Assembly: GCA_913062525.1 (NCBI GenBank)
Contig: CAJXWA010000008.1
Coordinates: 1-46,485 of the forward strand
DNA length: 46,485 nucleotides
Direction: 5' to 3'
Source: an uncultured Alphaproteobacteria bacterium
GTDB taxonomy: Bacteria > Pseudomonadota > Alphaproteobacteria > Sneathiellales > Sneathiellaceae
Shown in pieces: positions 16,216 through 46,485 of this stretch. Made by a program: the position numbers and the translations under genes. A model generated the notes under the pieces. The model ran no database searches. It saw only the letters and a list, made by a program, of their open reading frames with translations, and was not told where the DNA came from. Each line of letters begins with the position of its first letter. Within the stretch, counting starts at the first letter, position 1.

Positions 16216-17556
16216 TTATTCAAATTCCATTGCTTGAAAAATACGGGCTGCGTTTCTGAGTGACAGAAATTCATAGGTATCCAAATGCTCGTATGCGGTT
16301 TGGTCGATCTTGTAGGCGTCATTTAGCCCGCCATCATTATCAATAATGTCTTTAATTTTATCGCGCATAAACACGAGGTAATCTCTCGTGTATTTGGTGA
16401 CTTCCGCCATATTGGTAGGACTACCGTGCCCCGGTATTACGATTTTCGCCCCTAAACCTTCAAAGGCTTCCCACGTTTCAATCCAACCTGCTGTGTCTGT
16501 ATCTTCAAAAACAGGCAGCATCCGTTGATGAAATGCCATATCACCAGAGATCACCAGCTTCTTCTCTGGCATCCAAAGCATAATATCCCCGGGTGAATGC
16601 GCTGGGCCCAAGGTTTGAAGCTCAATACGAGTGGTGCCCAGTTCGATTATTTTTTTCTCTGAAAACGTTTCATCTGGATGCACAAGAATAGTGCCATAAA
16701 ATTTATCTCTAAGTCTTCGTTTGGCACTGGTAACGATGGCATCCCCGCGCTCCTCAATCTCCATAGCAGCATCTTCATGGGCTATCACAGGAACACCGAG
16801 ATCTTGCCAGTAGGATGCGCCCAATGCGGCGTGGCCTTGCCCATTTTCTAAAACCAAATATTTAACCGGCTGATCTGTTACTTTTTTGATCTCATCATGT
16901 AGTGATTTTGCAAGAAGCCAAGACCCGCCACCATTAAAAACTACAACACCATCGCCAGTTACCACAAACGATAGGTTATTATTATGGCCGGAATTTTCAT
17001 AAGTGGAGGGCGCCGTTTGACCGATAGCGGACCAAACACCGTCAGCCACCTTCTCTGGCAGTGCATAAAGGAAACTGTTAAGGGCCAAGTCAGGTTGTTC
17101 TATCGCCAGACCCGCTTTTTTCCAAGCGGGGAAACCGTCCGTGTAGTTTCGAACATTGACATACCCCAGCCGTTTTAAGGTGAGTACAGCAAGAAGGCTG
17201 CGTTGATTGTCATCGTCATAGACAACAATGGGCGCATTTTTATCAGCCACGGCTTCGCCAATACGAAATTCTAACCAACCCCGCGGGATAGACAAAGATC
17301 GCGTCGCCCTAATAATTCCCCCGGATAATTTCACCTCTTCCAACGTCCGAACATCAAGCAATATCGTCGTTGGATTTTTGATCAGTTCAGACTTAAGTTC
17401 GTCGGTCGAAATTCCGGGAGTATGCTTTCGAAGTTCATCCAAGGATTGACCATTGGCCAGAATAGGTTCTTTTTCAGTTTCCACTGCCATCACTGGAGAG
17501 ACAAAAGATAAGCCTAAACCCAAAGTAACTGCCGCTACACCAATTGCCAATTTCAT
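16216..17556 (-). CDS. Exported rhodanese / metallo-beta-lactamase-fold fusion with degenerate sites
   Basis: 446 residues with a signal peptide (about 1-24, ending PVMA). Residues about 45-150 are a rhodanese domain (ILLDVRTLEE, GFPAWKKAGL). Its active loop reads YDDDNQRS (113-120), where active enzymes have Cys after Tyr, so sulfur transfer by the usual route is unlikely. Residues about 165-400 are a metallo-beta-lactamase fold: motif 1 reads ENGQGHAALG instead of HxHxDH, while His320 (GPAHSPGD), Asp339 (SGDMAF) and His377 (PGHGSP) are kept. A partial metal site is therefore likely. Similar SoxH-like proteins occur near sulfur or methanol oxidation genes; none is seen here. Confidence 0.8.
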   Translation of the reverse strand: MKLAIGVAAVTLGLGLSFVSPVMAVETEKEPILANGQSLDELRKHTPGISTDELKSELIKNPTTILLDVRTLEEVKLSGGIIRATRSLSIPRGWLEFRIGEAVADKNAPIVVYDDDNQRSLLAVLTLKRLGYVNVRNYTDGFPAWKKAGLAIEQPDLALNSFLYALPEKVADGVWSAIGQTAPSTYENSGHNNNLSFVVTGDGVVVFNGGGSWLLAKSLHDEIKKVTDQPVKYLVLENGQGHAALGASYWQDLGVPVIAHEDAAMEIEERGDAIVTSAKRRLRDKFYGTILVHPDETFSEKKIIELGTTRIELQTLGPAHSPGDIMLWMPEKKLVISGDMAFHQRMLPVFEDTDTAGWIETWEAFEGLGAKIVIPGHGSPTNMAEVTKYTRDYLVFMRDKIKDIIDNDGGLNDAYKIDQTAYEHLDTYEFLSLRNAARIFQAMEFE

Positions 17557-31920: not shown

Positions 31921-32733
31921 CTAACCAACGGCTTGAATTGAAAACCACGTAGAACTATCACTTTCCGCAGATTGATCTGACCCACTATCCTGGAACGCAG
32001 CCAACTCAAAATAGTCTCCCGCCGTCACATCTAGGGGTGGTGATGTCAGGTTCATTACCAATTTTGATTGCGCATCATGGACGCAATAAGCCCGGCCAAT
32101 ATAAGTCGCTGACCCATTCTTTAAGAACAACACTTCACGACTATCGCTCAAGTCAGAAACCCAACGAACTTGCCCTTTCAGAATGATTTTGGAAACACCA
32201 ATGGGGATCGTGAAACGGCTGGGATTGCTGATATCAAAATAGGTTTCAGTGTCATATTCTGGGACGTCCCAGGTGATGGATGTAGCGATACCATCAGGAA
32301 TGGTGACATTGCTGCTTATATCGGTTAACGCCCCTGAGAATGTTGGAACAAGGCTGGCTGTTGATGTGTCATCAGTGAGGCCCAGAACATTGCTGCCATC
32401 ACAATAAAGCAACCTGTTTTCACCGTTAAGGATCGGGAAACTGTCCCCTGTTCCAGTCGTGATCGTTAGATTTTCGCCGCATAAGTTTTGGACCATAAAG
32501 GGCCGCTTGATTTCCGGCACGGTGGCCGTTACAGCGGAAGGTGCGGCCCCGCTGACCTGATGGAACCAGTTGTTCCGAAAGTCCTCATCCGACACTGAAA
32601 AATCACCCAAACTTGCGTCATAATCCAGCTTGCCTTCACATAACGCGGCTTCAAGTACTGCATCTGCATCATTTGATGTGACATATGCACTGGCCTGACT
32701 TTCCGCTATTTGCGGCAAATTTAACAACACCAC
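31921..32733 (-). CDS. Phage tail fibre/tip protein with C1q-like C-terminal domain
   Basis: 270 residues, GTG start sharing one base with the stop of the tail-tip gene (AAGGAG 8 nt upstream). The first ~60 residues are polar and probably attach to the tail. The centre (MVQNLCGENLTITTGTGDSFPILNG) is beta-rich, like base-plate or fibre modules. The last ~130 residues (TFSGALTDISSNVTIPDGIATSITWDVPEYDTETYF ... DYFELAAFQDSGSD) follow the C1q/TNF jelly-roll pattern, which forms trimers at fibre ends and binds receptors. Host recognition is inferred. Confidence 0.7.
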   Translation of the reverse strand: MVLLNLPQIAESQASAYVTSNDADAVLEAALCEGKLDYDASLGDFSVSDEDFRNNWFHQVSGAAPSAVTATVPEIKRPFMVQNLCGENLTITTGTGDSFPILNGENRLLYCDGSNVLGLTDDTSTASLVPTFSGALTDISSNVTIPDGIATSITWDVPEYDTETYFDISNPSRFTIPIGVSKIILKGQVRWVSDLSDSREVLFLKNGSATYIGRAYCVHDAQSKLVMNLTSPPLDVTAGDYFELAAFQDSGSDQSAESDSSTWFSIQAVG

Positions 32734-35700
32734 TAAACAATCTCCTTTGTTGTGAAGCCTCGACCTATTGCTTCTGACAGTTGGTAAATCGATAAACTCA
32801 AGGAAGGAATTTCAATTTCAGTTAGTTTAAAATCTTCATTAAATTCAATAAGTTCGTAGGTAAAATTTGACATACCGTCGACGTATTTTCTGACGGTTAA
32901 ACCAGCATATTCAAACACTAATTCATAACGTTCAGAACTCTCCGACAGTGGGATTATGCCGGCCAAACTTCCACCGCCAACACGGGTTCGTCTCACCCAA
33001 GAAAGCAGAAGCAAACCAGTTTCTCGTTCCGCTTTTACATGTACTGGCGCATAGGGCATTAAGTCAGTACCAGATAGGCTTTTCCGCTCTGCACTCACCT
33101 CTTCAAGGAGTTGACCCGCGCTAACCGCTTTCCAATAATGGGCGGTATTTAAGAATGATAGAGCGGCAACAGCGCTTGATACGCGATCTTGTTCGAGCAT
33201 GATGACCAAATCACCAACCACATGCCCAGAGCAGGCGCTTTCGGTACCACGGCGGCCGCGCAACAACCCTGACAATTCAGCAAGGCCGTCAGCTCGAATA
33301 TTCAAATTCGAAAATTGAATAATTTCGCTGCCCACAAGAAGAGCGTTTTTCCCGTTTAACATTTCAAGCTGAGAAATGCTTTCTTGCCGCTCTCCCCCTT
33401 GGGCGAAGCGGACTGTTAGGATATTTTCAGCATCCGTTTGCCAAGGGGATGACACATCGGACAATGCATTAGCCGCTACGCCCCACCCGATTGCGTTTGA
33501 GGTATAGGCAACCTGATCATATCGGCTCCCTTCGTTTGATGTGAAAAGCGCAGCACTATTCCAATCATCTCCAAAAGAAGATATGCCGAAGTAATATCGG
33601 CTTAACGCTCCCGCAGTTGCATCTTCATCCCGTAGCAATGGAATATCCAAAATATGGGATTTGCTAAAGGCAGTTGCGGTAATTACATCATCAGAATAGC
33701 CACTACCTTTATCCGCATCCAATGACAGCGAGGACGTCAACATTGACGCACCAACAGTCTCCACATCCAATGAGAAATCTGGCGCAAGGTAGGTTTGATT
33801 AAGGCGTCCCTCGTAGGAGGCTCCCGCACCTGTCAACCTAATGACATCGGCAGGATCCAGCGCGAGGTATTTTGTTGGCATACGCAAGGACTGCACATTG
33901 CGTTCCGCCCATGCGCCGTATAATGCCTGATAACAAACAGTTTTTGCTGACTGCGACGATAGCGCCATTGGCAGTTTAATGTTCACCTCGTTCCGCCCGT
34001 ACATGGTCACGTGCGGAGCGTAGCTTCTTTTGGCCGTTTGAGTGCCAATTTGATATCCCGCCTCATACGCCATGTAGGAAAGCGTAATAACACCCGGAAG
34101 TTCACTTTCCTGAATACGACTTTGGATGGGTTTTTGCATCAAATCCGTCACCGGAATTTCAAGAACTGGTGATTGATCCAGAGGGCAAAACTTCAGGGAA
34201 TACCCGCTTTCAGCCAGATTGAAATTACCAGCGAGAAGCAGCGGATCCAACGCATCCTGTATTGTCATCGACCGATTAATAAGATATCCACCGATATCAC
34301 CGTTCAGTTCGCTGACATCTACATCGGTATTATCAAGTCCTGCAGCGGCGGTGAGAGATAACACCAGCTCTGAAAATGCGACGTTATCTCCAGTATACCG
34401 CCGTAAATATAGTCGCTGAATAGGGGCGTTATTGGGCAAGATGACAATGCTATCTGTTTTTGCATCATACAAGCCCGTTGCAAAATCTCCGATATCGCCA
34501 AACAGCTGCAGATCTACGCGTTCGATTTCCTGCAAATCGTCGCAGGAAATATAAACCAGCCATCTGTCGCTTTCCAAAACAACGAAGCTGTCTCCATCCG
34601 ATGAATTGGCTATTATTTCATAGTTATTCACATCGCCGTCACGATAGGTAGATATATCTCCACTGATCATCGAAAATTTCATCAGGCGATAATTGTTGAG
34701 CAAAACAATTTCTTGAGTTGCACTTAGGTACACCACTGGCTTCGTCACGCAATTTGAAGCCCCGGAATCTGCCGCGACAAGATCTGCGACGGCTATCGTA
34801 TGCACCGTTGAATTGCCATTAAATTGGATCCCTGCTTCCGATGGAGAAGACCACAGGGAAACTTTAATAATTTCAAGATCAGCGAATGGGTTAATCGCAG
34901 CAATTCCCGTCATAATCACCCATGCATTTTCAAACGCGTCACGAACAACACCTGAACACGCGGGGCTATTTGTTCCTGCATAATCGACCATTTCAAGTTG
35001 CTCGTCAAAAACAACGACTTGACCAGACTGCTGCGATCCCGCCACTTGGAATTTGGCGCCCGTTATGGTTTCTGATATATCGACAGAATAGGTTACCGCA
35101 CCTATACCGTCTGGCAGCTCATTTGAAGCCGCGACAGTCATCAGATTTGAATTAAACCGATGGATCTGTCTGCCTGGTAAATTGCCAAATCCGGTTCCAA
35201 CCCAAAAGTCGCCGTTCCGATCCAAGCATAGCCCCACTTGGGCATCTGCAAGCTCGGGAAAATCAACACCGATTTCAGCTTCCTGTATCACAGTTAGAGT
35301 TGATAAATCGATTTTTCGAAACACGTCCCCACCGCCGACAACCTCATAGGAATAAAGAGCGTTTCGAGTCGTATCACGAGCAATCTGGCTTGGAATAAAG
35401 GGATAGCTCCCGCCGCTTAACTTTGGATAGTTTGAGAAGGCCTTTTTGGTAATCAGCACTTCAATATTTGGAACTCGATTACCGTAATTGGCAAGGGGCA
35501 AGGCATCGAACACCAAATAGCTGATCCCCCGGTACGCTGGGACATTACCAACGCCAAGCTCCGCCTCCATAACACTATCTGCGGTTTGGCTCTCATCACC
35601 GTTATAAAATCGGAACCGTATGTCAGCCGCCTTCTTTTCCCCGGCTGATTGAGCATCGTATATCAAAATGCCATCAGCCCAGATTTTTAAAAGCTCGTCA

Positions 35701-36053
35701 ACAACTCCGCTAGAAAATGCAATGGCGAAATTTAAAAAATAACTTTGGGCCGCCTGAACTGCTGTATTAGACGCTCCGCCTTTTCCGCTGATTTGGCTCT
35801 CGCCGTTTTCTTCTTGTAGATCACCGGCCCATATTATATTTCCGCCCAGTTTCATGGTCCCAAATAGAGATGGGATTACCGCTCCGTATGAGGCACCGGA
35901 AAAATTCAGATCACTCAAAGATGTTGAACTGCTGTCCTGATCGGGAAATAGCATTTTCCCCATGGTTGATCCCGCTGTCCAGCCAGCTCCCGCACCGATA
36001 CCAGTATAGGAGCCAACCCCAGCGCCAACGACACTAAATGCCAATGTAGCCAT
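32733..36053 (-). CDS. Large tail-tip (host specificity) protein, GTA gp15-like, with propeller-like insert
   Basis: 1106 residues; the ATG overlaps the peptidase stop by one base and AAGGAG precedes it. Residues about 30-205 match the start of GTA/lambda-J type tip proteins (PSLFGTMKLGGNIIWAGDLQEE, YFLNFAIAFSSGVVDELLKIWADG, NRVPNIEVLI). Residues about 590-760 match the Phage-tail_3 part (NRSMTIQDALDPLL, ESELPGVITLSYM). Residues about 225-560 look like a beta-propeller: repeated GLCLDRNGDFWVGT, VRDAFENAWVIMTG and GLYDAKTDSIVILPN strands. The end (FKLTEIEIPSLSLSIYQLSEAIGRG) is fibronectin-like. It sits at the tail tip; the propeller may bind a surface sugar. The TIM-barrel found in gp15 of Rhodobacter GTA is not evident. 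Confidence 0.8.
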   Translation of the reverse strand: MATLAFSVVGAGVGSYTGIGAGAGWTAGSTMGKMLFPDQDSSSTSLSDLNFSGASYGAVIPSLFGTMKLGGNIIWAGDLQEENGESQISGKGGASNTAVQAAQSYFLNFAIAFSSGVVDELLKIWADGILIYDAQSAGEKKAADIRFRFYNGDESQTADSVMEAELGVGNVPAYRGISYLVFDALPLANYGNRVPNIEVLITKKAFSNYPKLSGGSYPFIPSQIARDTTRNALYSYEVVGGGDVFRKIDLSTLTVIQEAEIGVDFPELADAQVGLCLDRNGDFWVGTGFGNLPGRQIHRFNSNLMTVAASNELPDGIGAVTYSVDISETITGAKFQVAGSQQSGQVVVFDEQLEMVDYAGTNSPACSGVVRDAFENAWVIMTGIAAINPFADLEIIKVSLWSSPSEAGIQFNGNSTVHTIAVADLVAADSGASNCVTKPVVYLSATQEIVLLNNYRLMKFSMISGDISTYRDGDVNNYEIIANSSDGDSFVVLESDRWLVYISCDDLQEIERVDLQLFGDIGDFATGLYDAKTDSIVILPNNAPIQRLYLRRYTGDNVAFSELVLSLTAAAGLDNTDVDVSELNGDIGGYLINRSMTIQDALDPLLLAGNFNLAESGYSLKFCPLDQSPVLEIPVTDLMQKPIQSRIQESELPGVITLSYMAYEAGYQIGTQTAKRSYAPHVTMYGRNEVNIKLPMALSSQSAKTVCYQALYGAWAERNVQSLRMPTKYLALDPADVIRLTGAGASYEGRLNQTYLAPDFSLDVETVGASMLTSSLSLDADKGSGYSDDVITATAFSKSHILDIPLLRDEDATAGALSRYYFGISSFGDDWNSAALFTSNEGSRYDQVAYTSNAIGWGVAANALSDVSSPWQTDAENILTVRFAQGGERQESISQLEMLNGKNALLVGSEIIQFSNLNIRADGLAELSGLLRGRRGTESACSGHVVGDLVIMLEQDRVSSAVAALSFLNTAHYWKAVSAGQLLEEVSAERKSLSGTDLMPYAPVHVKAERETGLLLLSWVRRTRVGGGSLAGIIPLSESSERYELVFEYAGLTVRKYVDGMSNFTYELIEFNEDFKLTEIEIPSLSLSIYQLSEAIGRGFTTKEIV

Positions 36054-36469
36054 CAGGTGATCTCCTTCAATCTATAAATCGCTACGGGTGTGCCGAACGT
36101 CTCCAGCTGTTCTTCCACAACCTTTCGCCGCCTTGCATGGGCGTGAATAACCGTCTTCTGGCCGTTATTTAACGCAAGGAAACCGGTATGGATGGGAAAA
36201 CCGCCGTCTTTAAACAACGCAATATCACCCTGTTGCCAGCTCTCACGGTTTATTGGGTTGAGGGTATTTCCCATAACCGATACCAGTTCGCTTCCATTTT
36301 GGCGTCGCGGGTATCTGCTAACTATTGGGACTTCCAACCCTAAATTTTCGGCAACTTTCAAACAAAGTCCAATACAATCAACACCTTTCTCAAAGCTCCG
36401 CCCCTGATGATGCCACCGCACCCCGATCCAGCGGCGTGCTTCTGCAATCACTTGGTTTGCATCAGGCAT
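36053..36469 (-). CDS. NlpC/P60-type peptidase of the phage tail
   Basis: 138 residues from the ATG at 36469 (GGAGGTG 4-5 nt upstream), overlapping the DUF2163 stop by 8 bp. Papain-like NlpC/P60 pattern: GVDCIGL (Cys32), FPIHTGFLAL (His94) and a further HAHARR. GTA gp14-type proteins of this size sit between DUF2163 and the tip protein in alphaproteobacterial phages and are thought to open the cell wall on entry. The gene order here is identical. Confidence 0.85.
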   Translation of the reverse strand: MPDANQVIAEARRWIGVRWHHQGRSFEKGVDCIGLCLKVAENLGLEVPIVSRYPRRQNGSELVSVMGNTLNPINRESWQQGDIALFKDGGFPIHTGFLALNNGQKTVIHAHARRRKVVEEQLETFGTPVAIYRLKEIT

Positions 36470-37307
36470 TTTGCACCTCCAACAAACCATCAAGGCCCGG
36501 TACATAAGGGAACCCCCGAAAATTCACCTGATTGACATATCGCTCTTTACAAGATGAAAATCGTTTATCACAACCAGGGTATAATGTGATGCTATCCCCC
36601 ACAGAAACCTCATAGGGAGCCGCAATGAAAAGCGTTAGCTGTTTGCCAGAGTTTACCCAGCTTTGAATTTCAAGTTTTTGGCCCGCATTGTCTCCGCTCG
36701 TAAAATGGAGAATGCCACCATCAAGTTCTCCATCATCCGCGGCATAATTTGTCAGTGTCAAATTACTTCTGCTGGATGTATCGGCAATGACATCCATATT
36801 TGCCAAAGCTTCTATATCAAGCATACATCTGGCATCGCCAAGATCGGCCGTGCATTCCGGTGTATAAATCTTCCCTAGATTTCGCTTAAAGGCATTTGAT
36901 AATCCGCGAAGCTCCGCTTGGAATAAGCCATCAGACCAGCTCACCTCACCTATCCACCCTTTTCGAAGCGGAATACTGCCCATTGAGGCATCTTGCCAAT
37001 TCAATAGAAAAAAATGAATTTGGGCGAAGTCGTATATGCCCGCTCGCAAATCATTTTCGGTTAGCCAGTCACTGTTTAAGCATCCAGACAAGTCCATTTC
37101 ATCGGTATCTGTTCCGCTACTTCCTTTAAGTGAACTTCGGTTATACCCGTCACTAGCGCGGTAAAGGTGACCGTTATATGTCAAATCTGCATCATGATCG
37201 GTTAGGAAAACCTCTTCCCCGTCTCGCCGTAGGATATACCAACAAGACGCAAGGCTAGTGACTTCACCCTCCAGATGATTTTGGAGTTCTGGCGTCAGTG
37301 TTTTCAT
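36462..37307 (-). CDS. DUF2163 phage tail hub-like protein (GTA gp13-like)
   Basis: 281 residues from the ATG at 37307 (GGAG 8 nt upstream), overlapping the previous stop as ATGA. Recognised by SLASCWYILRRDGEEVFLTDHDADLTYNGHLY near the start and the closing cysteine cluster YPGCDKRFSSCKERYVNQVNFRGFPYVPG, typical of DUF2163. The clustered cysteines bind an iron-sulfur centre in the Rhodobacter GTA hub. By position it is the hub of the base plate. Confidence 0.9.
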   Translation of the reverse strand: MKTLTPELQNHLEGEVTSLASCWYILRRDGEEVFLTDHDADLTYNGHLYRASDGYNRSSLKGSSGTDTDEMDLSGCLNSDWLTENDLRAGIYDFAQIHFFLLNWQDASMGSIPLRKGWIGEVSWSDGLFQAELRGLSNAFKRNLGKIYTPECTADLGDARCMLDIEALANMDVIADTSSRSNLTLTNYAADDGELDGGILHFTSGDNAGQKLEIQSWVNSGKQLTLFIAAPYEVSVGDSITLYPGCDKRFSSCKERYVNQVNFRGFPYVPGLDGLLEVQNA

Positions 37308-37912
37308 TGCCGGATCTCCACCAATTTGACGCTTTGCCACTGGTGTATATCCGGACCGGGTATGCTGACTTCCATCAGATCACTATCAAACCGGACAGGA
37401 ACATCAAATTCGCAGTTAACGCTAATCACTTTTCCGTCTTCTGGCGCATCTGTAAAAGTGATCAGTCCTGTATTCACATCCACAGACCAATTACCAAACT
37501 GCGCAGCATCATCTAAAAACACTGTCACGGTATTTTCAGATATTTTATGAACTGGGCGTTCGTAACGTAAAGAGATTGCGATCGGATCTTGATATACCTT
37601 TTTGACTTGAAAGACTTTCTCAACTCCGTCAGCGATTGAAATTTCACCATCTTTGATTTTATAGTCTGAGAAATCCTTCAAACGAAAACCATAAGCCCGG
37701 CCGCGCCTCGCATGAAAAAAGGCAAGCAATTCTTCCCATTCACTTCCCCGGCTGGGCGCGATGTCAGCCTGATACTCTCTGCGGGCTGCAGACCAGTTAA
37801 TATTCCGTTGCTCATGCCCCGAATTTAAGGTCTGGACTGTGGTTGAAAATCTGGGCCCACCCATGGCGCCATATGAAATACAGGTTGGAAATCTAATTTC
37901 GTGGAAGCTCAT
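37304..37912 (-). CDS. DUF2460 phage distal tail protein (GTA gp12-like)
   Basis: 202 residues from the ATG at 37912. It opens MSFHEIRFPTCISYGAMGGPRFSTTVQTLNSGHEQRNINW and continues with EWEELLAFFHARRGRAYGFRLKDFSDY, both hallmarks of DUF2460. It forms the distal tail ring in gene-transfer agents. A GTG three codons upstream is possible. It follows the tape measure gene by 5 bp. Confidence 0.9.
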   Translation of the reverse strand: MSFHEIRFPTCISYGAMGGPRFSTTVQTLNSGHEQRNINWSAARREYQADIAPSRGSEWEELLAFFHARRGRAYGFRLKDFSDYKIKDGEISIADGVEKVFQVKKVYQDPIAISLRYERPVHKISENTVTVFLDDAAQFGNWSVDVNTGLITFTDAPEDGKVISVNCEFDVPVRFDSDLMEVSIPGPDIHQWQSVKLVEIRQ

Positions 37913-37917
37913 ATAAA

Positions 37918-38619
37918 TCACCCATTTCGTTTCAATAATCGCTGCGCACTCATCAAGGCTTCACTTTGGATTTGTGATTGTGACCGCCGGAAACCTTCAG
38001 CGTCAGGAGTGTTTATTTGAAAGTTCATATTGATGGTTTGAGATTGAGAAGGGTTTGATCCCACTTTTTGCTGAGCTGGAGTTTCAATATTGACCCGCTC
38101 TCCCCGGGACAAGCGTAGCCCCACGAGGTTCCGGTCCCGTCCAGCCGCACCGCCAACAGTGAATTGTCCGCCGGATGCAAAACCCGGGAACAAATTAGTC
38201 AAAAAACTCCCCGCGCCGCCCGCCATAGACGAGAGAATATCCCCAGTACCCGGAGATTTCTTTCCTGTGAAGTATGAGTTTCCTAATCCAAGCAGGTCAT
38301 CCTCAAGAGATTTCAACACAGTTTTCGCCTGCTCTCCACCAAAGACAAACTGATCAAAGGCAGATCCCAGCACATCACTTAAATTGCTGGCAACGCTATT
38401 CCCAAGTCCTGCAAGTTCCCCAAGTTGAGATTTTGCCCCCTTAAACACACTTGCATATAACCCCCCATCCGATTTAGAGGCTGCGTTGTTTAATTTCAGT
38501 GACCGAAACTCCTTCCGAAGATCTTTGGTTGCGGCGGAAATACGATCAAAATTGTCCATCACTTGATCAAACCCAATTGACTGTATTTCAATACCTAAAA
38601 CACCCAGATCTGTTTCCAT
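37918..38619 (-). CDS. Short tail tape measure protein
   Basis: 233 residues (GAGGG 6 nt before the ATG). A helical N-terminal half (DNFDRISAATKDLRKEFRSLKL) and a Gly/Ser-rich middle lead to FASGGQFTVGGAAGRDRNLVGLRLSRGERVNIETP. That ending is typical of tape-measure/minor tail proteins of lambda-like and GTA-like tails. It is small for a phage tape measure and close in size to that of Rhodobacter GTA (about 220), which predicts a short tail. Confidence 0.8.
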   Translation of the reverse strand: METDLGVLGIEIQSIGFDQVMDNFDRISAATKDLRKEFRSLKLNNAASKSDGGLYASVFKGAKSQLGELAGLGNSVASNLSDVLGSAFDQFVFGGEQAKTVLKSLEDDLLGLGNSYFTGKKSPGTGDILSSMAGGAGSFLTNLFPGFASGGQFTVGGAAGRDRNLVGLRLSRGERVNIETPAQQKVGSNPSQSQTINMNFQINTPDAEGFRRSQSQIQSEALMSAQRLLKRNG

Positions 38620-38633: not shown

Positions 38634-38963
38634 TTAAGATTGATTGTTGTTCCAAAGTACGGACAGCGAGACCAATGCCTGAATTTCCCAAGGCTTAGGA
38701 TCAATCCCGAACAAAGCCGCCACGTCTTGTCGCCAGCCCCCCGAGGTCGGTAGTTTTGCGCCATAACTGGGGAGAAGCGCGACAAACCAATCCCACACAT
38801 GCGTCATGCAAGACGGCAGCGACGTGACGGTCCTATTATTTGGTGATTTTCCCATTGATTTTTCGATTTGACGCAAGGCCTTTGCCTGCGTTATACCGCG
38901 ATCATTCACGTGTTTTTCTAGACGAAACTGATTATCAGCCCAGAACAATAAATGCGCGATCAT
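38634..38963 (-). CDS. Tail assembly chaperone, second frame (T-like)
   Basis: 109 residues starting MIAHLLFWADNQFRLEKHV; the ATG overlaps the stop of the upstream chaperone as ATGA. By position between the first chaperone and the tape measure it is the T-like partner. It has no ribosome site of its own apart from the overlap, and a -1 slippery site lies just before it, so a fused product is likely. The sequence itself (WDWFVALLPSYGAKLPTSGGWRQDVAALFGIDPKPWEIQALVSL) is not one I can place in a named family. Confidence 0.7.
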   Translation of the reverse strand: MIAHLLFWADNQFRLEKHVNDRGITQAKALRQIEKSMGKSPNNRTVTSLPSCMTHVWDWFVALLPSYGAKLPTSGGWRQDVAALFGIDPKPWEIQALVSLSVLWNNNQS

Positions 38964-39355
38964 ATGGGCAAAAAATGGCCTCTATCCTCCACGAACTGTG
39001 TCACTTGCTCGCGGATCCAGATTTGCTCCCGGAAGATTTTTTCTGCATTCGACGGAGTGCATTGTAACGCTTGCCCATGATAGCTGACATTTTCCCAGCT
39101 CAAGGTAGCGGCAACCAAACGCTCCAAGTGTCGGTTTTCCAGCTCTTCAGCTGTCAGGTCGGCTTTAGCATCCGTTATTTGTTGATCAATTTGACGACGA
39201 ACCACTTGTCGGTAAGACGGTGCATCAGTTCCCCTCAACCACAGACTTACGCCTAAGATCTCATGACTTACTGGGTGACGGAGCTCAAGTTTTGCCCCTT
39301 TTTCCGCACAAGTTCCCACATCAAGTTCTGCAATATCAAACATAGCTTGAGACAT
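38960..39355 (-). CDS. Tail assembly chaperone, first frame (G-like)
   Basis: 131 residues, TAAGGAG 5 nt before the ATG. Mostly helical and charged (DQQITDAKADLTAEELENRHLERLVAATLSWENVSYHGQALQ). It lies directly after the tail tube gene, the position of lambda gpG. It would bind the tape measure before the tail assembles. Its last codons contain the slippery run and its stop lies two codons further. Confidence 0.75.
   Translation of the reverse strand: MSQAMFDIAELDVGTCAEKGAKLELRHPVSHEILGVSLWLRGTDAPSYRQVVRRQIDQQITDAKADLTAEELENRHLERLVAATLSWENVSYHGQALQCTPSNAEKIFREQIWIREQVTQFVEDRGHFLPI
38969..38975 (-). other. Predicted -1 ribosomal frameshift site
   Basis: Read on the minus strand, T TTT TTG follows the X XXY YYZ rule in the reading frame of the first chaperone (CAT TTT TTG CCC ATA TGA). 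A -1 slip gives GCC CAT ATG ATC, entering the frame of the second chaperone in phase. Tail phages commonly make a G-GT pair this way. Confidence 0.65.
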
Positions 39356-39364: not shown

Positions 39365-40270
39365 TTAAGTTGCTGTTCTGGTGATTTTGAGATTGGTGCC
39401 CGCGCTTTCGTCGTAAAGGGCGGCAAAAGGTAGATTTATGGTTACAACCTTATCGCCTTTCACAGGCATATCTGCTCCGGTATATAGAATTTTTGGGATT
39501 AAGATTGTGTAACTTCCACCGATACCACTCAAACTAATTTCAAGACTGCTTTCATCAGCATTTATGAATTTTTCAATCAGTGCATTGTTTTCAAAGTAGG
39601 CGACAAGCTCTCCGCTCACCCTTGATCTACCGGGAACAATGGTTTCGGCTTTATCACTGCCTAAAACGAATGTGCTTTCAGCCCCATTTTCAACCTTCAA
39701 ATCAATGCCTGCTACATGGGCGAGAACGGTCCCCCCCTCACTAACAGTTCCCATAAAACTGTCTATTGGAGGCGTATTTGATAATTCCAAAGGGCTGGCA
39801 TCAGATGGCGAGGCAGCTGTATCCATACCTTTTCCAATGACAGAAAAGCGGCCTGCGACAAGGCTTTCTGGCTGAATGGAAAGATTAAGCTCATCGACAA
39901 CACATCCCGTAAATGTTTGAAACTGCGAGATATCATTGAAGCCCCGCTCAAACGTCAGGCTTTTCTGGATTGTCCCTGATTTAAGGACATCGCTATTCCA
40001 ATCTCCATACAGGGCCGCCGCTAAAATATCATCGTGGGATCCAAAACTTAACTCAAAGTCCACATCACCGGTTACCGACTGGAGGCTGTGGATCACATGC
40101 CCCATCTGACGATCATTCCGGATTTCATCACTTTGGATTGTTTTCTTTGACAGTGATATCTCACAGCCCGTATGGCGCAATCGCGACAAGGACGGACTGG
40201 CCGGAGTATCACCAAAAATTTCTTCCACAACATAAGTAAGGCTATGTCTCGATTGGACGGAAAAAGTCAT
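39365..40270 (-). CDS. Major tail tube protein
   Basis: 301 residues, TTAGGAG before the ATG. The N-terminal RLRHTGCEISLSKKTIQSDEIRNDRQMGHVIHSLQSVTGDVDFELSFGSHDDILAAALYGDW is typical of the tail-tube family seen in siphoviruses of proteobacteria. A C-terminal Ig-like half (SFMGTVSEGGTVLAHVAGIDLKVENGAESTFVLGS) follows. It stacks in rings around the tape measure. Confidence 0.85.
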   Translation of the reverse strand: MTFSVQSRHSLTYVVEEIFGDTPASPSLSRLRHTGCEISLSKKTIQSDEIRNDRQMGHVIHSLQSVTGDVDFELSFGSHDDILAAALYGDWNSDVLKSGTIQKSLTFERGFNDISQFQTFTGCVVDELNLSIQPESLVAGRFSVIGKGMDTAASPSDASPLELSNTPPIDSFMGTVSEGGTVLAHVAGIDLKVENGAESTFVLGSDKAETIVPGRSRVSGELVAYFENNALIEKFINADESSLEISLSGIGGSYTILIPKILYTGADMPVKGDKVVTINLPFAALYDESAGTNLKITRTAT

Positions 40271-40279: not shown

Positions 40280-40669
40280 CTAAAAATAGCAACGCCAAGA
40301 TATCGTTACTGGAATATTTGTGTGGGTTAAGGTTGTTTTGTTCGGTCCAACTTCCACCTTTTCAAGATGAACTTCGTGCCCATCAAAAACCAAAACCTGC
40401 CCATGCTTAAAATGGGTACAAAGAGCGTCGATTTCGATCATTGCCCCGTGGTCTGTTGTTTCGTGAACAGTTAGTTTTAGAGACCCACGATGCTCTTTTG
40501 GCAAATCCGGTCCCAATAAAACTGTTTTCGATTTCCCAGGTATGAACACTGAAGCAATGTAAGCGTCCTCATGAGCCGGTGTGTGAGGATGATCAAAAAA
40601 GACTGCTCGGTCAGCAGCCACACCTTGAAGATGCGTTTCGAGGGCCGCTTTTGTCTTTAGGTAACTCAT
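40280..40669 (-). CDS. Putative tail terminator protein
   Basis: 129 residues from the ATG at 40669, which overlaps the upstream stop (ATGA). MSYLKTKAALETHLQ followed by a beta-rich part (HTPAHEDAYIASVFIPGKSKTVLL, NIPVTISWRCYF) fits the tail terminator fold. It lies right before the tail tube gene, where terminators are found. Assigned mostly by position. Confidence 0.65.
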   Translation of the reverse strand: MSYLKTKAALETHLQGVAADRAVFFDHPHTPAHEDAYIASVFIPGKSKTVLLGPDLPKEHRGSLKLTVHETTDHGAMIEIDALCTHFKHGQVLVFDGHEVHLEKVEVGPNKTTLTHTNIPVTISWRCYF

Positions 40670-41025
40670 TGATACCATACCTCAAACAAGACACCTGCTC
40701 CGTTGTCGAGAGAAGCCACCTGCTGTAATGTGAAACGGGTACCATCAATTTCCAACAGATCGCCGGGCACTGGTATGCAATCCTCACACTGAAGAAATGA
40801 GACGTTATAGGATTTATCTATAACCGGCCCTGTTTCCAAAAATGATTTCCCCTTGGGAGATTGCATCTTCAATAGGTTCACCGAAAGACGCGTTTCGCTG
40901 ATAACTTCGGGAAGCCCCGGTGTATGGACGGCTACTGATGTTCGGATGATGCTGACGGGGATAACCATATCGCCAGCATTGGCAAAGACATTCCCCACGA
41001 CCCGTTTAATGGTTTCACGCTTCAT
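40666..41025 (-). CDS. Putative head-tail connector/neck protein
   Basis: 119 residues from the ATG at 41025 (AGGA 5 nt upstream), one base after the upstream stop. Beta-rich with DMVIPVSIIRTSVAVHTPGLPEVISETRL and ECEDCIPVPGDLLEIDGTRFTLQQVASLDNGAGVLFEVWYQ-like core. Position between the adaptor and the tail terminator suggests a neck or head-closure protein; I do not recognise a named family. Confidence 0.6.
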   Translation of the reverse strand: MKRETIKRVVGNVFANAGDMVIPVSIIRTSVAVHTPGLPEVISETRLSVNLLKMQSPKGKSFLETGPVIDKSYNVSFLQCEDCIPVPGDLLEIDGTRFTLQQVASLDNGAGVLFEVWYQ

Positions 41026-41026
41026 A

Positions 41027-41500
41027 TTATCCTCGCATGATTTCAGGAGACTGCACACGCGCGCCAATTTGCATCAACAATTTGAAAACAAAGCTCGGCC
41101 TTCGCCCATTGCCAGAATAAACAAGCTCCAATGAGCCGATTTTTTCTTTCATGATCTGCCTGTTATCGAGGGGATTTTGCGGGTTTTCCAAAAGAGATGA
41201 CGCAAGTTCCAGAACGGCTGTTGTAAGGGCATAGGGAAGCCCTGACAGGATCCGACCATCTTTATCTTTCACGCCAGAGCGCGGCCATTTCAAACCTTGG
41301 GCATATGAGAAAGGGAATCCAGAGTAGTCGTAAAAATCCACATAGGCACTTGCCTGTTTAAGTGCATTTTCCCGTTGCCCCGTACTGGCACTTTCCCAAG
41401 AACCAACAGATAAGGCTGTATAATGCGTATCTGCCTCATCTAACGAGATATAACTGAGCGCGCCGACGACACCAGCTCCTGTTTCAACAATTAGGGTCAT
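41027..41500 (-). CDS. Head-tail adaptor (annotated as DnaT-like in relatives)
   Basis: 157 residues. The pattern YISLDEADTHYTALSVGSWESASTGQRENALKQASAYVDFYDYSGFPFSYAQGLKWPRSGV is characteristic of small phage adaptor proteins, some listed as DnaT-like. It is helical after the first strand and lies immediately after the coat gene, the expected place for an adaptor that closes the portal. Confidence 0.75.
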   Translation of the reverse strand: MTLIVETGAGVVGALSYISLDEADTHYTALSVGSWESASTGQRENALKQASAYVDFYDYSGFPFSYAQGLKWPRSGVKDKDGRILSGLPYALTTAVLELASSLLENPQNPLDNRQIMKEKIGSLELVYSGNGRRPSFVFKLLMQIGARVQSPEIMRG

Positions 41501-41566
41501 GATTTGAGTTCCTGCATCAACAGTTGAGGAAAAAGGAGAGGAGATAATTTACTCCTCTCCAAGTCG

Positions 41567-42703
41567 CTAGCCGGCCAAACGAATTGCCAATTCAGGACGC
41601 ACAAGTTTCACACCCCAAAGCAGATCAAATTCCCAAACTACCTGTTTATATTGGCGACTGACTTCCAAACGTAACGACAAACCTGTTTGTGGGTCAGTCA
41701 TGGACATAATTTGGCTACCAAGACCGTCCCCAACTGTACTTTGGACCAACGGTCTATTGGCGAATGCAAAAGCATCGCGGTTAAAAACAAGGTTCACTTC
41801 ATGGCTGCCCACAAACGTTAATTCGTCAGCATCAGCAACATCAGCGACAAGCGCTGGTGAGATGATCATCGTATAGACTCCACCACTTAGATCTGTGGCT
41901 GAATTCACAACATATTGCTGCGCTCCCCCTCCAATAGTGAAGACATCTCCTTCAATAGGGCTCGCTGAAAATCCGTCTGCTTTCAAGGTTTTACCTGATG
42001 ATCCTGAGATATCAACTTGGATACTCCCAGAAGTAGCCGCGCCGGTTTCATGTCTCATGACATGATCATCACTAAACCAATTGATACCGAACTTACGGCC
42101 GATTTCACCTTCGATTTTTACCGAATTGTTGCCGGTTTTATCCACATCAGAAAATGATGCGAGGTCCAACGCATTTGCTTCCGCATCAAAGTTGAGAACG
42201 CCATAGCGGTTCTCTTTTGGTGCCCTTTGTTTAAGCAACATTTTACGAGCTGCAGTGGCATCGGTTGAATCTGTCTCAAACGGCGTTGTGCCTGCTGCGC
42301 CAACGACACCATAAATGCCTTTATATTGATTGTGAATGGTCTCGTTCACTGCATTGGCAAGCGCTCTGATAGCGGAACCCACTTGCATAGGAATGAAGTT
42401 CTCATGAGAGGATATCTCCATCATTTCCTTGTCGGTTAGATGGAAACTGGATTTCTTCCAATTATTAAGCTCGATTTGTATTTTTTCCATTTCAGAAGAC
42501 GAAGATTCTGGAGGAACGCTCCCGGGCGTGACATCAGATGCCACAAGATCCGCTGGTAGTGGCACATCAATAGTGTCGCCTTTTTCCGCTGCTTCTGCAC
42601 TAAAGCTACCATTTACTAATCGAGGCATGATGGCCTGTTCACGTAAAGACATTAGGCCACGCGCAAGGATTTTCGGCATAACTGCCGACACATCGTTCGT
42701 CAT
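41567..42703 (-). CDS. Major capsid protein, P22 coat-like
   Basis: 378 residues, GGAGAAG before the ATG. It opens MTNDVSAVMPKILARGLMSLREQAIMPRLVNGSFSAEAAEKGDTIDVPLP, matching the P22-coat-like group, and contains an inserted domain about 220-290 (GDVFTIGGGAQQYVVN). It ends near the conserved LRLEVSRQYKQVVWEFDLLWGVKLVRPELAIRL. It forms the icosahedral shell together with the scaffold gene just upstream. Confidence 0.85.
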   Translation of the reverse strand: MTNDVSAVMPKILARGLMSLREQAIMPRLVNGSFSAEAAEKGDTIDVPLPADLVASDVTPGSVPPESSSSEMEKIQIELNNWKKSSFHLTDKEMMEISSHENFIPMQVGSAIRALANAVNETIHNQYKGIYGVVGAAGTTPFETDSTDATAARKMLLKQRAPKENRYGVLNFDAEANALDLASFSDVDKTGNNSVKIEGEIGRKFGINWFSDDHVMRHETGAATSGSIQVDISGSSGKTLKADGFSASPIEGDVFTIGGGAQQYVVNSATDLSGGVYTMIISPALVADVADADELTFVGSHEVNLVFNRDAFAFANRPLVQSTVGDGLGSQIMSMTDPQTGLSLRLEVSRQYKQVVWEFDLLWGVKLVRPELAIRLAG

Positions 42704-42765
42704 AGGTTTCTTCTCCGAAGATATTTAGCTGGGAAAGTTTGTAGGTTTGGGCGCCGCCCCTCTGC

Positions 42766-43464
42766 CTACAAAGATACGGTTATTTTACCGGCGGCGATTT
42801 CTTCAATCTTTGAATTGATCGACTTTTGATCTGTAGGATTTAGGTGGCGAGAGTTTCGCCCGCTTTGTACTGGGCTCATGCCGCCGCCAGTTACAGGGTT
42901 CGTATTGAACGCTGCTGAGAACGACGGGTCATCTTTCAGTTTAAGCACAAGATCTTCAACTGAAATAGGAAGCGTATCGCGATCCCCATCCACGATTTCT
43001 TTAGTTTCTTTAACTTGAACTTGACGCACGCCGTCAACGTTTAAAATTTCCAGAAAATTTAAAACATGTGGCTTTAAAAGCGCAATATTTCCTTTGGCTT
43101 TTGCGATGGCTTGGGTCGCTTTTTCTTCCATCATGTAAGTGCCATTTATTATGGATAAGGCTGATACTTCCTGATCTCGTGTTTCAAGTTGGCTGCCTAA
43201 ATCACCAAGTTGTGTATTCAGGCTTTTTAATTTTTGCTCCAACTCATGGGACGTTTCAGCGTGTTCCCGGAAGCCTAGCAACGATTGCTGCAAGGCTCCA
43301 TTTTCTTGCGTCAGTGTTTCAATAATTTTGTCATCCGTATCGGCTGTGAATTTCACTGCCAATTCTTCAATTAAAGAGCATCCTTCTTCAGTTGTCACAT
43401 ATAGGTTTTGAAAATTATCTGGAACATCATTTACGTGTTTTACATGAACGGGAAAATCAAACAT
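42766..43464 (-). CDS. Phage scaffolding protein
   Basis: 232 residues with AAAGGA before the ATG. Long coiled-coil region (LTQENGALQQSLLGFREHAETSHELEQKLKSLNTQLGDLGSQLETRDQEVSAL, about 50-105) followed by a disordered C-terminal third ending in a basic helix (RNSRHLNPTDQKSINSKIEEIAAGKITVSL). Such a shape and the place between portal and coat are those of a scaffold that guides shell assembly. Confidence 0.8.
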   Translation of the reverse strand: MFDFPVHVKHVNDVPDNFQNLYVTTEEGCSLIEELAVKFTADTDDKIIETLTQENGALQQSLLGFREHAETSHELEQKLKSLNTQLGDLGSQLETRDQEVSALSIINGTYMMEEKATQAIAKAKGNIALLKPHVLNFLEILNVDGVRQVQVKETKEIVDGDRDTLPISVEDLVLKLKDDPSFSAAFNTNPVTGGGMSPVQSGRNSRHLNPTDQKSINSKIEEIAAGKITVSL

Positions 43465-43523
43465 ATTAATCCTTTCATAAACAGTCGTTTATTTGAAACA
43501 GCCATTAAAGTGACCTAGCGCTC

Positions 43524-44837
43524 TCAAACCCCTGGAGCATTAAAGGCAAGGCTATCACTTACAATTCCGCGAGATATGACTTCTTTTTGGATATCCTGTT
43601 GGCTAATGACACCTGCTTTCCAAAGGGCGAGCAGGTCATTAATACCAGACGCATCTGTTCCGTTTTCGACATTAGAAAACTGCATCTTTAGAGCCCCGAA
43701 ATGCTCAACACCACTCCACTTTGCAAACAACCGCAGCACTGAATTGAGACTGTCTTCCAATTCAGCTGTCATGGCTGCAATCGGGCTTAACGCATCATTG
43801 GCATCAATGAGCCGACCGGTCGCTGTTTCACTTCCCTGACCTTGTTCAAATTGAAGACCAAACAGGCGGATATTTTTTTCTAAATCAGCAAGCTCTCGTG
43901 CCCCGGCTTCAAGGGCCGCACCAGAACTTTCCACATAATAATATTTTCCATCAGGATCTGAAGTTGTCAGCACTTTATTTGGCCCAACTTCAATAGGACC
44001 GTCAATTTCCGGATCATACCCAGAGGCTGCCAATATAGGAAAGGATGCGACGTTTAACGCATTCCGTTGATCTGACCGAATTTGATAATGCTCCAAGTTC
44101 AAATAAGCGAGGTCCTCCAATGGCGGAACAGCTTCCATATATCCCGTTCGATTGGAATATAGCGTTACCAGTGGGATCTCCCCGAGGCTATTTGCGCCAT
44201 CATCGATGGTCTGCCAATCGCCCTTTTCAGTTTCTTCAAGCAAAAACCAATGATTGGGTTCAAGCACCCTAATACGCTCTCTATTTTCTTCACTAAAGCC
44301 TTGATAATCACGGTTCTTTTCCCGAATTCGAACTTGAGACAATTTCGGAACAGCCGATCCCTCATCCCACTGAACTGCGATGACCTGTTCCGCGGGAATA
44401 TGAACTGCATAGGGACGAATAATGCTCTCGTTTCCCTGTGCCGTTTTATTTTGATCCGGAAAATCCACTAGCACATATGACAGCCCTGAGACGAGAGCAT
44501 CTTCAAACCAGCTTTGCGCGAAGGCATTTAGGCCGCGCCCCATCAGATCAATATTCTTAAAATTATTTTGAATAGATGAAGGTAGATCGGTGCTCGGCAT
44601 TACCGGGTTTGCGAATACTCGTCCTACAATCTTTTGAACAGTCCGTCGATAGTAGTTTCGAAGAACTGCTCGTTTGGCCCGTTCGTTATATACAGCAGGG
44701 TTTTCTGCAGGATGCCGTGGAAGATAAACATTGCCTGCTTTTTTCATTGCAGGTGTGCCCCCCATCAATGCGCGTGGTAGTGCCCATTTAGCAGCCATTT
44801 CATCGTAACTTGTGGAAGTTATTGATGGATCTATCAT
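43524..44837 (-). CDS. DUF4055 phage portal protein
   Basis: 437 residues; its ATG overlaps the terminase stop (ATGA). Recognised by AKRAVLRNYYRRTVQKIVGRVFANPV, SWFEDALVSGLSYVLVDFPD and a helical late part LEAGARELADLEKNIRLFGLQFEQG, typical of DUF4055 portal proteins. It forms the twelve-fold ring through which DNA enters the shell and to which the adaptor binds. Confidence 0.88.
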   Translation of the reverse strand: MIDPSITSTSYDEMAAKWALPRALMGGTPAMKKAGNVYLPRHPAENPAVYNERAKRAVLRNYYRRTVQKIVGRVFANPVMPSTDLPSSIQNNFKNIDLMGRGLNAFAQSWFEDALVSGLSYVLVDFPDQNKTAQGNESIIRPYAVHIPAEQVIAVQWDEGSAVPKLSQVRIREKNRDYQGFSEENRERIRVLEPNHWFLLEETEKGDWQTIDDGANSLGEIPLVTLYSNRTGYMEAVPPLEDLAYLNLEHYQIRSDQRNALNVASFPILAASGYDPEIDGPIEVGPNKVLTTSDPDGKYYYVESSGAALEAGARELADLEKNIRLFGLQFEQGQGSETATGRLIDANDALSPIAAMTAELEDSLNSVLRLFAKWSGVEHFGALKMQFSNVENGTDASGINDLLALWKAGVISQQDIQKEVISRGIVSDSLAFNAPGV

Positions 44838-46186
44838 GAATACATTTCCCGTTGTGATGTTCGTTTTCTGTCCCGAAGAGCGTTAAAGGCGTCAACAACT
44901 GCATCTACTTGATCGTCGTACCGGCCGTTTGGAAAAGCCTGTAATTCGTTTAAAAAGGCGTCATTCCAGTTCCCTTTTATCAAAAACACATTTCCGCTTT
45001 CAACTTGCGATGAAAAAGCTGCGGCTCTCGTAACCTTACTTCCCGTTACAGGCTTGGCGATCACCCGGTATCCACTGAGCAATCGTGTCAATGATTGGGC
45101 TTGCGCCTTCCCTGCCTGACCCGGATCTTGCGGCAGGGCAATCGACACAGAAGTACCATCCAACGCCGCCAACCGGGACATTCTCTCTTCTACTTCCCGT
45201 GGGGATCCTTTAAACCGTTCAACATGTTCAACATAATATCTCCCTGATTTATCGACACTTACCCGGACGCCAACACTAAAATCTCCCGTTGTCTTTTTTT
45301 CATCTAAAGTACCGGTAGCTGCCAAATCCCAGCCGCGAACCGAATTCACTGTTTCTGGTGCAACTCCCACCACAGGAAACCAGCTTGGCTGAAAATACAG
45401 GCCGCCAGCGGGCCGAATGTTCCAGTTTCCGTTTAAAAGTCGTTCCCGTTCTACTTGATCAAGGGCCGCTAAATTGGATTTGTAGCCTTTGTCTTTCAAT
45501 AACAAAATTTTGTTATCATCTATGGATGCGGCAACGAAAGTCAGAGATTTGGGAATTTGATCTGTCTGCAGTTTTGTCAACGCGTCTGATTTACTTTGCC
45601 AATTCAACTCATCTCCATCTCGAAAGAACCACCGCAGCACCCCTGACCGATCACCCTCCGCCAGACCTGTTTTTGGATTGATCCACCAACTAACCAGAGG
45701 CGCAACCCAACTATCTGCATCTGGGTTACATGTAGCCCGTACATATGGAGAAATACCGGATGTGGATCGATTACGACTTAACAGATAAAAGAACTGTTTT
45801 TCCGTAAAATGAGTAAGTTCATCAAAGCCCAAATAGGTAATTTCAGTCCCTTGCCAGTCATATCGGTTCTTTTCATGTTCCATGTAACCAAAGCTGATAG
45901 TTGCGCCAGACGGAAAACGCCACAAAAGATCGGTTTCTTTGGCTTCTCCACCGACTTTTCCGTAAAGTTGCCGTGACGTATCCCAGAGACCACCTTCGTT
46001 CCGTATTTGCTTACTTGTTCTGCGAAAGATGACAGCTCTAAATTTCGGATTATGAATATGTCTAAGTGGTTCCAGTAAAAGCGCATAACTTTTACCGCCC
46101 CCCGCAGCTCCGCCGTAAATAGCAATGTCTGCATTTGAAGCCAGAAAAATTTCCTGGGGTCCACTTTGTGGTTTAAGGGCGACCAT
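44834..46186 (-). CDS. Terminase large subunit
   Basis: 450 residues. ATPase: Walker A GGAAGGGKS (25-33), Walker B ITYLGFDE with D122/E123 (116-123). Nuclease: VRGWDLAAT and late DDQVDAVVDAF supply the acid residues. It packages DNA into shells with the small subunit upstream, overlapping it by 14 bp. The subtype, headful or cos, is not decided from this sequence. Confidence 0.92.
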   Translation of the reverse strand: MVALKPQSGPQEIFLASNADIAIYGGAAGGGKSYALLLEPLRHIHNPKFRAVIFRRTSKQIRNEGGLWDTSRQLYGKVGGEAKETDLLWRFPSGATISFGYMEHEKNRYDWQGTEITYLGFDELTHFTEKQFFYLLSRNRSTSGISPYVRATCNPDADSWVAPLVSWWINPKTGLAEGDRSGVLRWFFRDGDELNWQSKSDALTKLQTDQIPKSLTFVAASIDDNKILLLKDKGYKSNLAALDQVERERLLNGNWNIRPAGGLYFQPSWFPVVGVAPETVNSVRGWDLAATGTLDEKKTTGDFSVGVRVSVDKSGRYYVEHVERFKGSPREVEERMSRLAALDGTSVSIALPQDPGQAGKAQAQSLTRLLSGYRVIAKPVTGSKVTRAAAFSSQVESGNVFLIKGNWNDAFLNELQAFPNGRYDDQVDAVVDAFNALRDRKRTSQREMYS

Positions 46187-46485
46187 TCTCAGGCAAGTAA
46201 ATCTTAGCCCGGAACAATGATTTTTTCGATTTTTCGCCTTTATCGAATTTTGAACTTCCGTAGAAATTGGGTGCGAAATGCTCCATCAACCATTTGCGCG
46301 TATCAATTCGAAGCTTGGAGCGAGCGACATTCTCTCTGCAATCGGTTTTAATATCTTCAAGGTTTTCATTTTTATCAGTATTGTCGGCGATCTGTACGAT
46401 TTCTCCGGCAAACAGGTCTGCTAAAAAATGACGAACTTTTTTTTCGTCTTTCTTTTTGAATGCAACCCCTCTTAGAGCCAGCAAA
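46173..46485 (-). CDS. Terminase small subunit (partial, runs off right edge)
   Basis: The visible C-terminal 103-104 codons continue to the right edge, so the start lies outside the window. The TTG at the edge is not a proven start. The segment RKWLMEHFAPNFYGSSKFDK matches the conserved C-terminal part of Sf6/P22-type small terminases (RWxxExxAPxxYG), which recognise DNA. Followed by the large subunit with a 14-bp overlap. Confidence 0.75.
   Translation of the reverse strand, partial: LLALRGVAFKKKDEKKVRHFLADLFAGEIVQIADNTDKNENLEDIKTDCRENVARSKLRIDTRKWLMEHFAPNFYGSSKFDKGEKSKKSLFRAKIYLPENGRP

What the first reader, a model, noticed from the sequence alone, without database searches (positions are those of the whole stretch)
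38960..39000. In-phase -1 slippery heptamer joining the two tail chaperone frames
T TTT TTG lies in frame two codons before the stop, and a -1 slip enters the second frame exactly, giving a G-GT type fusion. It is the classical arrangement, here in a GTA-like tail, and the second frame depends on an ATGA overlap otherwise.
Basis: partly seen in the sequence, partly recalled or inferred. Interest (0 to 1): 0.62.

Follow-up and report, generated by a model that had tools for sequence, protein, structure and literature searches.

The report
Frameshift joining two tail-assembly chaperone frames
A slippery stretch of sequence at the end of a tail-assembly gene lets some ribosomes slip back one base and make a longer fused protein, as in many tailed phages; here it has been kept for a long time inside a phage-derived gene cluster that Sneathiella bacteria inherit like ordinary genes.

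Summary
On the minus strand, T TTT TTG (38975-38969) lies in phase at the end of a 131-aa tail-assembly-chaperone frame, two codons before TGA. A -1 slip enters the next frame, giving a predicted 240-aa GT beside the 131-aa G. It is the only in-phase X XXY YYZ heptamer in the 22-nt overlap (0.03 expected). Relatives supply the decisive evidence. Seventeen other Sneathiellales genomes carry the pair. Of the 17 unfused copies (window included), 15 keep an in-phase heptamer and the other two keep a shift-prone tetramer at the same Phe codon. At least 8 have no start codon in the second frame for 44 nt or more, so that frame needs frameshifting. No conserved downstream RNA structure was found. This is the classical G/GT frameshift (lambda; annotated in phage Seurat): a new member of a known kind. 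The carrier is more unusual: a single-copy, vertically inherited cluster with GTA-like tail-tip genes but a P22-type head, undescribed in the papers searched. Translation was not measured.

The parts
38960..39355 (-). frame 0: G, 131-aa tail-assembly chaperone
   Evidence: phrog_313 'Tail assembly chaperone' E 2e-12; AlphaFold2 model pLDDT 93 matches many predicted phage tail/tape-measure chaperones; best, weak PDB hit is HK97 tail assembly chaperone 2ob9, E 0.68
38969..38975 (-). slippery heptamer T TTT TTG (U_UUU_UUG), in phase with G
   Evidence: same heptamer in 12 of 17 unfused Sneathiellales copies
38986..38990 (-). SD-like GGAGG, 10 nt upstream of the heptamer (codons GTG GAG GAT, V-E-D): probable upstream stimulator
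   Evidence: meets the SD criterion of PMC4066793; present in 14 of 17 unfused copies at the same spacing; its GAG codon is invariant in 16 of 16 copies with Glu
38960..38981 (-). region open in both 0 and -1 frames; the slip must occur here
   Evidence: -1 frame stop TAG at 38984-38982, 0-frame stop TGA at 38962-38960
38634..38969 (-). T: -1 frame extension (GCC starts by re-reading G38969); GT predicted 240 aa. ATG 38963-38961 is inside GT
   Evidence: translation; T homologs match phrog_4966 and phrog_3817 'tail chaperonin'; purifying selection
39365..40270 (-). major tail tube protein, just upstream of G
   Evidence: PF18906 Phage_tube_2 E 2e-47
37918..38619 (-). short tape-measure protein (233 aa), just downstream of T
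   Evidence: phrog_38390 tape measure E 3e-10; NF058675 RcGTA tape 44 bits, below its cutoff 220
32733..37921 (-). GTA-like tail tip: Dit (TIGR02217), hub (TIGR02218), NlpC peptidase, megatron
   Evidence: TIGR02217 176 bits and TIGR02218 212 bits over cutoff; NF048004 megatron 409 bits, below cutoff 800
40280..46186 (-). tail terminator, neck genes, P22-type coat, scaffold, portal (DUF4055), TerL
   Evidence: PF13554, PF20557, PF11651, phrog_206, PF13264, PF03237/PF17289

Best explanation
This is a programmed -1 ribosomal frameshift that sets the ratio of two tail-assembly chaperones. Most ribosomes finish G (131 aa). A minority pause, helped by pairing of the SD-like GGAGG with 16S rRNA; the tRNAs on TTT (P site) and TTG (A site) slip back one base on T TTT TTG and continue into T, making GT (240 aa). 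By analogy with lambda, G and the G part of GT bind the tape measure and the T part recruits the tail-tube subunit, so a low GT:G ratio directs tube polymerisation. Shown here: anatomy, phase, conservation, synonymous constraint, lack of alternative starts in relatives, family and fold of G. Inferred: actual slippage, its efficiency, the stimulatory role of GGAGG, and the chaperone function.
For: Heptamer in phase, sole candidate in a 22-nt overlap. 15 of 17 unfused Sneathiellales copies keep an in-phase heptamer (T TTT TTG 12, T TTT TTT 2, A AAT TTT 1; some have two) and the other two keep T_TTT or T_TTC. Codon 127 ends in T in 17 of 17 although its residue is N, H or R. Leu129 is TTG in GC-rich species where TTG is mostly 5-19% of Leu codons. 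Of 77 conserved codon columns in G, E123 GAG, N127 AAT and P130 CCC are fully conserved, with F128 TTT next. No T-frame start for at least 44 nt in 8 copies; none at all in 112 codons in G024. T under purifying selection. Distant phage homologs keep an in-phase slip site at the same D-R-x-N-F motif; phage Seurat's G/GT, annotated as ribosomal slippage, uses T TTT TTC at the same N-F-F end.
Against: No expression data. In E. coli, U_UUU_UUG is not among the efficient motifs (efficient ones: H_HHU_UUY; PMC4066793). No conserved downstream structure. The window itself has an ATGA overlap that could give T alone. G011 and G024 lack a canonical heptamer. Species are related, so codon-conservation counts are not independent events.
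Confidence: 0.92

Rival explanations
1. T is a separate gene made by termination-reinitiation at the ATGA overlap; the heptamer is incidental.
For: ATGA in the window and in G018, G008, G010; TTGA in G011. RcGTA-type clusters of genus g244 do use ATGA or GTGA overlaps with no heptamer.
Against: 12 of 17 unfused copies lack a start overlapping the stop and 8 lack one for at least 44 nt, yet T is conserved. No well-spaced SD for the window's ATG (nearest AGAGG about 15 nt, GGAGG 22 nt upstream). Synonymous constraint sits on the slip codons.
Confidence: 0.05
2. Transcriptional slippage on the T run, not ribosomal frameshifting, makes GT.
For: A T6 run; in G023 the run is T10, long enough for polymerase slippage.
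Against: T6 is short for this (own knowledge); relatives use non-homopolymer sites in the right phase (A AAT TTT in G014, A AAT TTC in L043 and L188, G GGA AAC in phage Pm86).
Confidence: 0.03
3. The second frame is a decaying remnant and the overlap has no function.
For: T evolves fast (median pN/pS 0.72); the cluster has been largely deleted in G001.
Against: T is open in all 17 unfused copies and fused in frame in the 18th; several close pairs have pN/pS about 0.31-0.47; the slip site is the most constrained part of G.
Confidence: 0.02

Closest known systems
Escherichia phage Seurat tape-measure chaperones CPT_Seurat13/14 (KM236243)
   Same: G just upstream of the tape measure, ends in N-F-F, in-phase U_UUU_UUC immediately before the stop, -1 T frame without start codon, annotated ribosomal slippage
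   Different: UUC instead of UUG in the A site; G sequences barely alignable (hhalign E 0.007, probability 6%); siphophage genome, not an inherited cluster
Phage lambda G/GT and the conserved tail-gene frameshift (Xu et al. 2004, cited in PMC5009743)
   Same: -1 shift near the end of G gives GT; position between tube and tape-measure genes
   Different: lambda uses G_GGA_AAG (own knowledge); here U_UUU_UUG with an upstream SD-like element; sequence similarity to lambda G not tested
RcGTA-type gene transfer agents, g10/g10.1 (PF11836 plus a small -1-frame ORF, often with an F-P-W motif)
   Same: inherited phage-derived cluster with homologous Dit, hub and megatron; second chaperone in the -1 frame
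   Different: G is not PF11836, which was absent from the five Sneathiella genomes listed; head is P22-type; RcGTA-type clusters use either ATGA/GTGA overlaps or C CCT TTC
E. coli dnaX -1 frameshift
   Same: slippery heptamer with an upstream internal SD as stimulator (Larsen et al. 1994, cited in PMC4066793)
   Different: dnaX uses A_AAA_AAG plus a downstream stem-loop (own knowledge); no conserved stem found here

Membership tests
Programmed -1 frameshift of phage tail-assembly chaperones (G/GT) | Two overlapping frames between tail tube and tape-measure genes | tested here: met
   Phage_tube_2 - G - T - tape measure in the window and in five other Sneathiella genomes
Programmed -1 frameshift of phage tail-assembly chaperones (G/GT) | In-phase X XXY YYZ heptamer in the overlap | tested here: met
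   Present in the window; 15 of 17 unfused Sneathiellales copies including it
Programmed -1 frameshift of phage tail-assembly chaperones (G/GT) | First frame is a tail-assembly chaperone | tested here: met
   phrog_313; fold matches to predicted tail/tape-measure chaperones
Programmed -1 frameshift of phage tail-assembly chaperones (G/GT) | Second frame not independently initiated | tested here: inconclusive
   No start overlapping the stop in 12 of 17 copies, which supports it for the family; the window itself has an ATG there
Programmed -1 frameshift of phage tail-assembly chaperones (G/GT) | Fusion protein made in vivo at a low ratio | not testable with these tools
   needs protein data
Prokaryotic -1 frameshift stimulators | SD-like sequence 6-17 nt before the motif | tested here: met
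   GGAG/GAGG/AGGA in the window; 14 of 17 unfused copies including it (criterion from PMC4066793)
Prokaryotic -1 frameshift stimulators | Conserved downstream RNA structure | tested here: not met
   RNAalifold: 0 pairs; window 60-mer z = 0.01
RcGTA-type gene transfer agent (Rhodogtaviriformidae) | RcGTA-family head genes and g10 chaperone | tested here: not met
   P22-type coat PF11651; no PF11836 match in the five Sneathiella genomes listed
RcGTA-type gene transfer agent (Rhodogtaviriformidae) | RcGTA-family tail-tip genes | tested here: inconclusive
   TIGR02217 and TIGR02218 over cutoff; tape, NlpC and megatron models matched but below cutoff
Gene transfer agent in general | Vertical inheritance of a structural cluster at a fixed host locus | tested here: met
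   TerL vs gyrB trees share 9 of 17 splits (0.17 by shuffling), r 0.89 within the genus; same upstream host genes in G018 and G011, same downstream ones in the window, G018 and G014
Gene transfer agent in general | Particles that package and transfer host DNA | not testable with these tools
   needs particles

The most novel reading that the evidence does not exclude
Sneathiella carries a previously undescribed, independently domesticated gene transfer agent (P22-type head, GTA-like tail tip, 233-aa tape measure). Its tail frameshift is maintained by selection on the host and has changed in place: heptamer exchange, reduction to a tetramer, and in G023 possible reversal, where GT is the frame-0 product and slippage on T10 would yield G.
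Probability: 0.5. Interest if true: 0.65.

Novelty: new member of a known kind. Interest (0 to 1): 0.42.

Why it matters
The frameshift itself is expected in a phage tail cluster. Its conservation in a vertically inherited cluster without a visible integrase is informative: synonymous constraint on the slip codons over a whole genus means the tail is probably still being built to specification, so the cluster is more likely a working gene transfer agent than a wreck. Conserved frameshift sites could serve as a sequence test for functional GTAs. No paper found in the held library reports this frameshift for a GTA.

Tried and rejected
Downstream stem-loop or pseudoknot: single folds show strong stems in some GC-rich relatives, but z-scores are mostly weak, the consensus has no pairs, and the window is at chance. 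PDB sequence search with the G and T profiles: only chance hits. Curated Pfam or NCBIfam families for G and T: none. A search with the mixed -1/+1 alignment had no usable pattern. The GT fusion itself was not folded. An earlier count gave the heptamer as 38971-38977; the correct coordinates are 38969-38975.

Full report
WHAT IS THERE. The feature is on the minus strand. Frame 0 ends GTG GAG GAT AGA GGC CAT TTT TTG CCC ATA TGA. The heptamer T TTT TTG occupies 38975-38969, two codons before TGA at 38962-38960. The -1 frame is closed upstream by TAG at 38984-38982, so the two frames are both open for only 22 nt, and this is the only in-phase X XXY YYZ in that stretch. A slip there gives G residues 1-129 followed by A-H-M-I-A-H-L..., 240 residues in all. 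Chance: 81 in-phase heptamers of this class in 12,509 window codons predict 0.032 in the five usable positions, 0.0012 for TTTTTTG. Given the amino acids H-F-L and local codon use, the window's own heptamer has a probability of about 0.11, so the window alone would not be convincing; relatives are.

WHAT THE GENES ARE. G (131 aa) matches phrog_313 'Tail assembly chaperone', E 2e-12. Its AlphaFold2 model (pLDDT 93) matches predicted phage proteins named tail-assembly or tape-measure chaperone, among them both the short and the long frameshifted products of Caulobacter phage Sansa; the best PDB match is HK97 tail assembly chaperone 2ob9, but weak (E 0.68). G follows the tail tube gene (PF18906) and T precedes a short tape measure. 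T of the window is weakly linked, and T of G024 clearly, to phrog_4966, and the latter also to a 'tail chaperonin' family.

RELATIVES. The host genus is Sneathiella. All 25 held genomes of the order were searched: 18 including the window have one copy of G; among the near-complete genomes 15 of 18. One, G023, has G and T fused in frame. Of the 17 unfused copies (window included), 12 have T TTT TTG, two T TTT TTT, one A AAT TTT; some have two overlapping sites. G011 (T TTT ATT) and G024 (AAT TTC CTG) lack a heptamer but keep T_TTT and T_TTC, the U_UU.[U,C] tetramers described as among the most shift-prone in bacteria (PMC4066793). The residue before the key Phe is N, H or R, but its codon always ends in T. 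Across 77 conserved codon columns of G, the fully conserved ones are E123 GAG (16/16), N127 AAT (11/11) and P130 CCC (11/11), followed (tied with one other column) by F128 TTT (17/18 with G023); the mean over columns is 0.65. TTG is mostly 5-19% of Leu codons in the GC-rich species that keep it. The product of codon-choice probabilities is about 1e-20 if genomes were independent; they are not, so this overstates the evidence.

WHY T NEEDS FRAMESHIFTING. ATG overlaps the stop in the window and in G018, G008 and G010, and TTG in G011. The other 12 unfused copies have no start there; in eight the first ATG, GTG or TTG is at least 44 nt downstream or absent, and G024 has none in 112 codons. T is nevertheless open everywhere and under purifying selection (several close pairs pN/pS 0.31-0.47; median over all pairs 0.72). 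Distant viral homologs, down to about 21% identity, mostly show the same layout at a D-R-x-N-F motif, with T TTT TTG, T TTT TTT, A AAT TTT or A AAT TTC and usually no nearby start. In phage Seurat the record itself notes ribosomal slippage, and its G ends AGT AAT TTT TTC TAA.

STIMULATOR. GGAGG at 38990-38986 ends 10 nt before the heptamer. The criterion used for bacterial -1 sites (GAGG, GGAG, AGGA and similar, 6-17 nt upstream; PMC4066793) is met in 14 of 17 unfused copies, and the Glu codon that forms it is invariably GAG. Its role is inferred. No downstream structure is conserved. U_UUU_UUG is not listed among the efficient motifs in E. coli; lambda needs only about one GT per 30 G (PMC5009743), so a weak site is compatible.

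THE CARRIER. The cluster runs TerS - TerL - portal - scaffold - P22-type coat - neck - terminator - tube - G - T - tape - Dit - hub - NlpC - megatron - orf270, in the same order in five other Sneathiella genomes (TerS by PF20901 in two). Upstream lie a small ORF and a regulator-like ORF (HTH in G018), then cysteine-synthase-like, AlaX-like and rhodanese-like genes in both G018 and G011; downstream, the RND transporter pair is shared by the window, G018 and G014. No integrase was seen among the ORFs examined, which was not an exhaustive search. TerL and gyrB trees share 9 of 17 splits against 0.17 expected. In G001 the cluster has suffered a large deletion from the portal start to orf270. This is the behaviour of a domesticated element. 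It is not RcGTA: the coat and chaperones differ and PF11836 was not found in the five Sneathiella genomes listed, and a published RcGTA survey listed no RcGTA-like cluster in two Sneathiellales genomes (PMC6821227). Whether it makes particles is unknown.

VERDICT. A genuine, conserved -1 G/GT frameshift signal: a new member of a known kind in an unusual, probably GTA-like, carrier.

Noticed in passing
L082, L084, L085, L181-L186, L076, L080 (RcGTA-type clusters); contrast L161-L180, L074: In RcGTA-type clusters the second chaperone is also in the -1 frame. One set has its F-P-W motif upstream of the g10 stop, behind an in-phase C CCT TTC (several with no start codon before it); another genus mostly uses ATGA/GTGA overlaps without a heptamer; L075 has G GGA AAG just before the stop. 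This suggests -1 frameshifting in some RcGTA-type GTAs.
   Followed up: partly
L017 (G023), junction in locus 1501-2229 (+): T run extended to T10 (GAC AAT TTT TTT TTT GAG): G and T are one ORF, and a -1 slip meets TGA at once, which would yield G. Either inverse recoding or a homopolymer sequencing error.
   Followed up: partly
L187, L189, L047, L193-L196: Phage homologs of G whose T lies in the +1 frame at the same Phe codon (AAC TTT CGA, TTT CAA or TTT CGT) with no start at the junction; most resemble the UUU_CGN +1 site described for influenza PA-X (PMC3498833). The direction of frameshifting seems to have switched at one codon.
   Followed up: partly
L199 (G001) about 14837-16904: The cluster is reduced to TerL, 23 residues of portal and part of orf270 by what looks like one internal deletion.
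   Followed up: partly
L069:4879-5394 (-), L062:9713-10267 (+): Small ORF without Pfam match between the regulator-like ORF and TerS in both genomes examined; a candidate regulator of the cluster.
   Followed up: no
window 46173-46485: The contig ends inside the gene upstream of TerL, probably TerS, so the cluster is cut off in the window.
   Followed up: no
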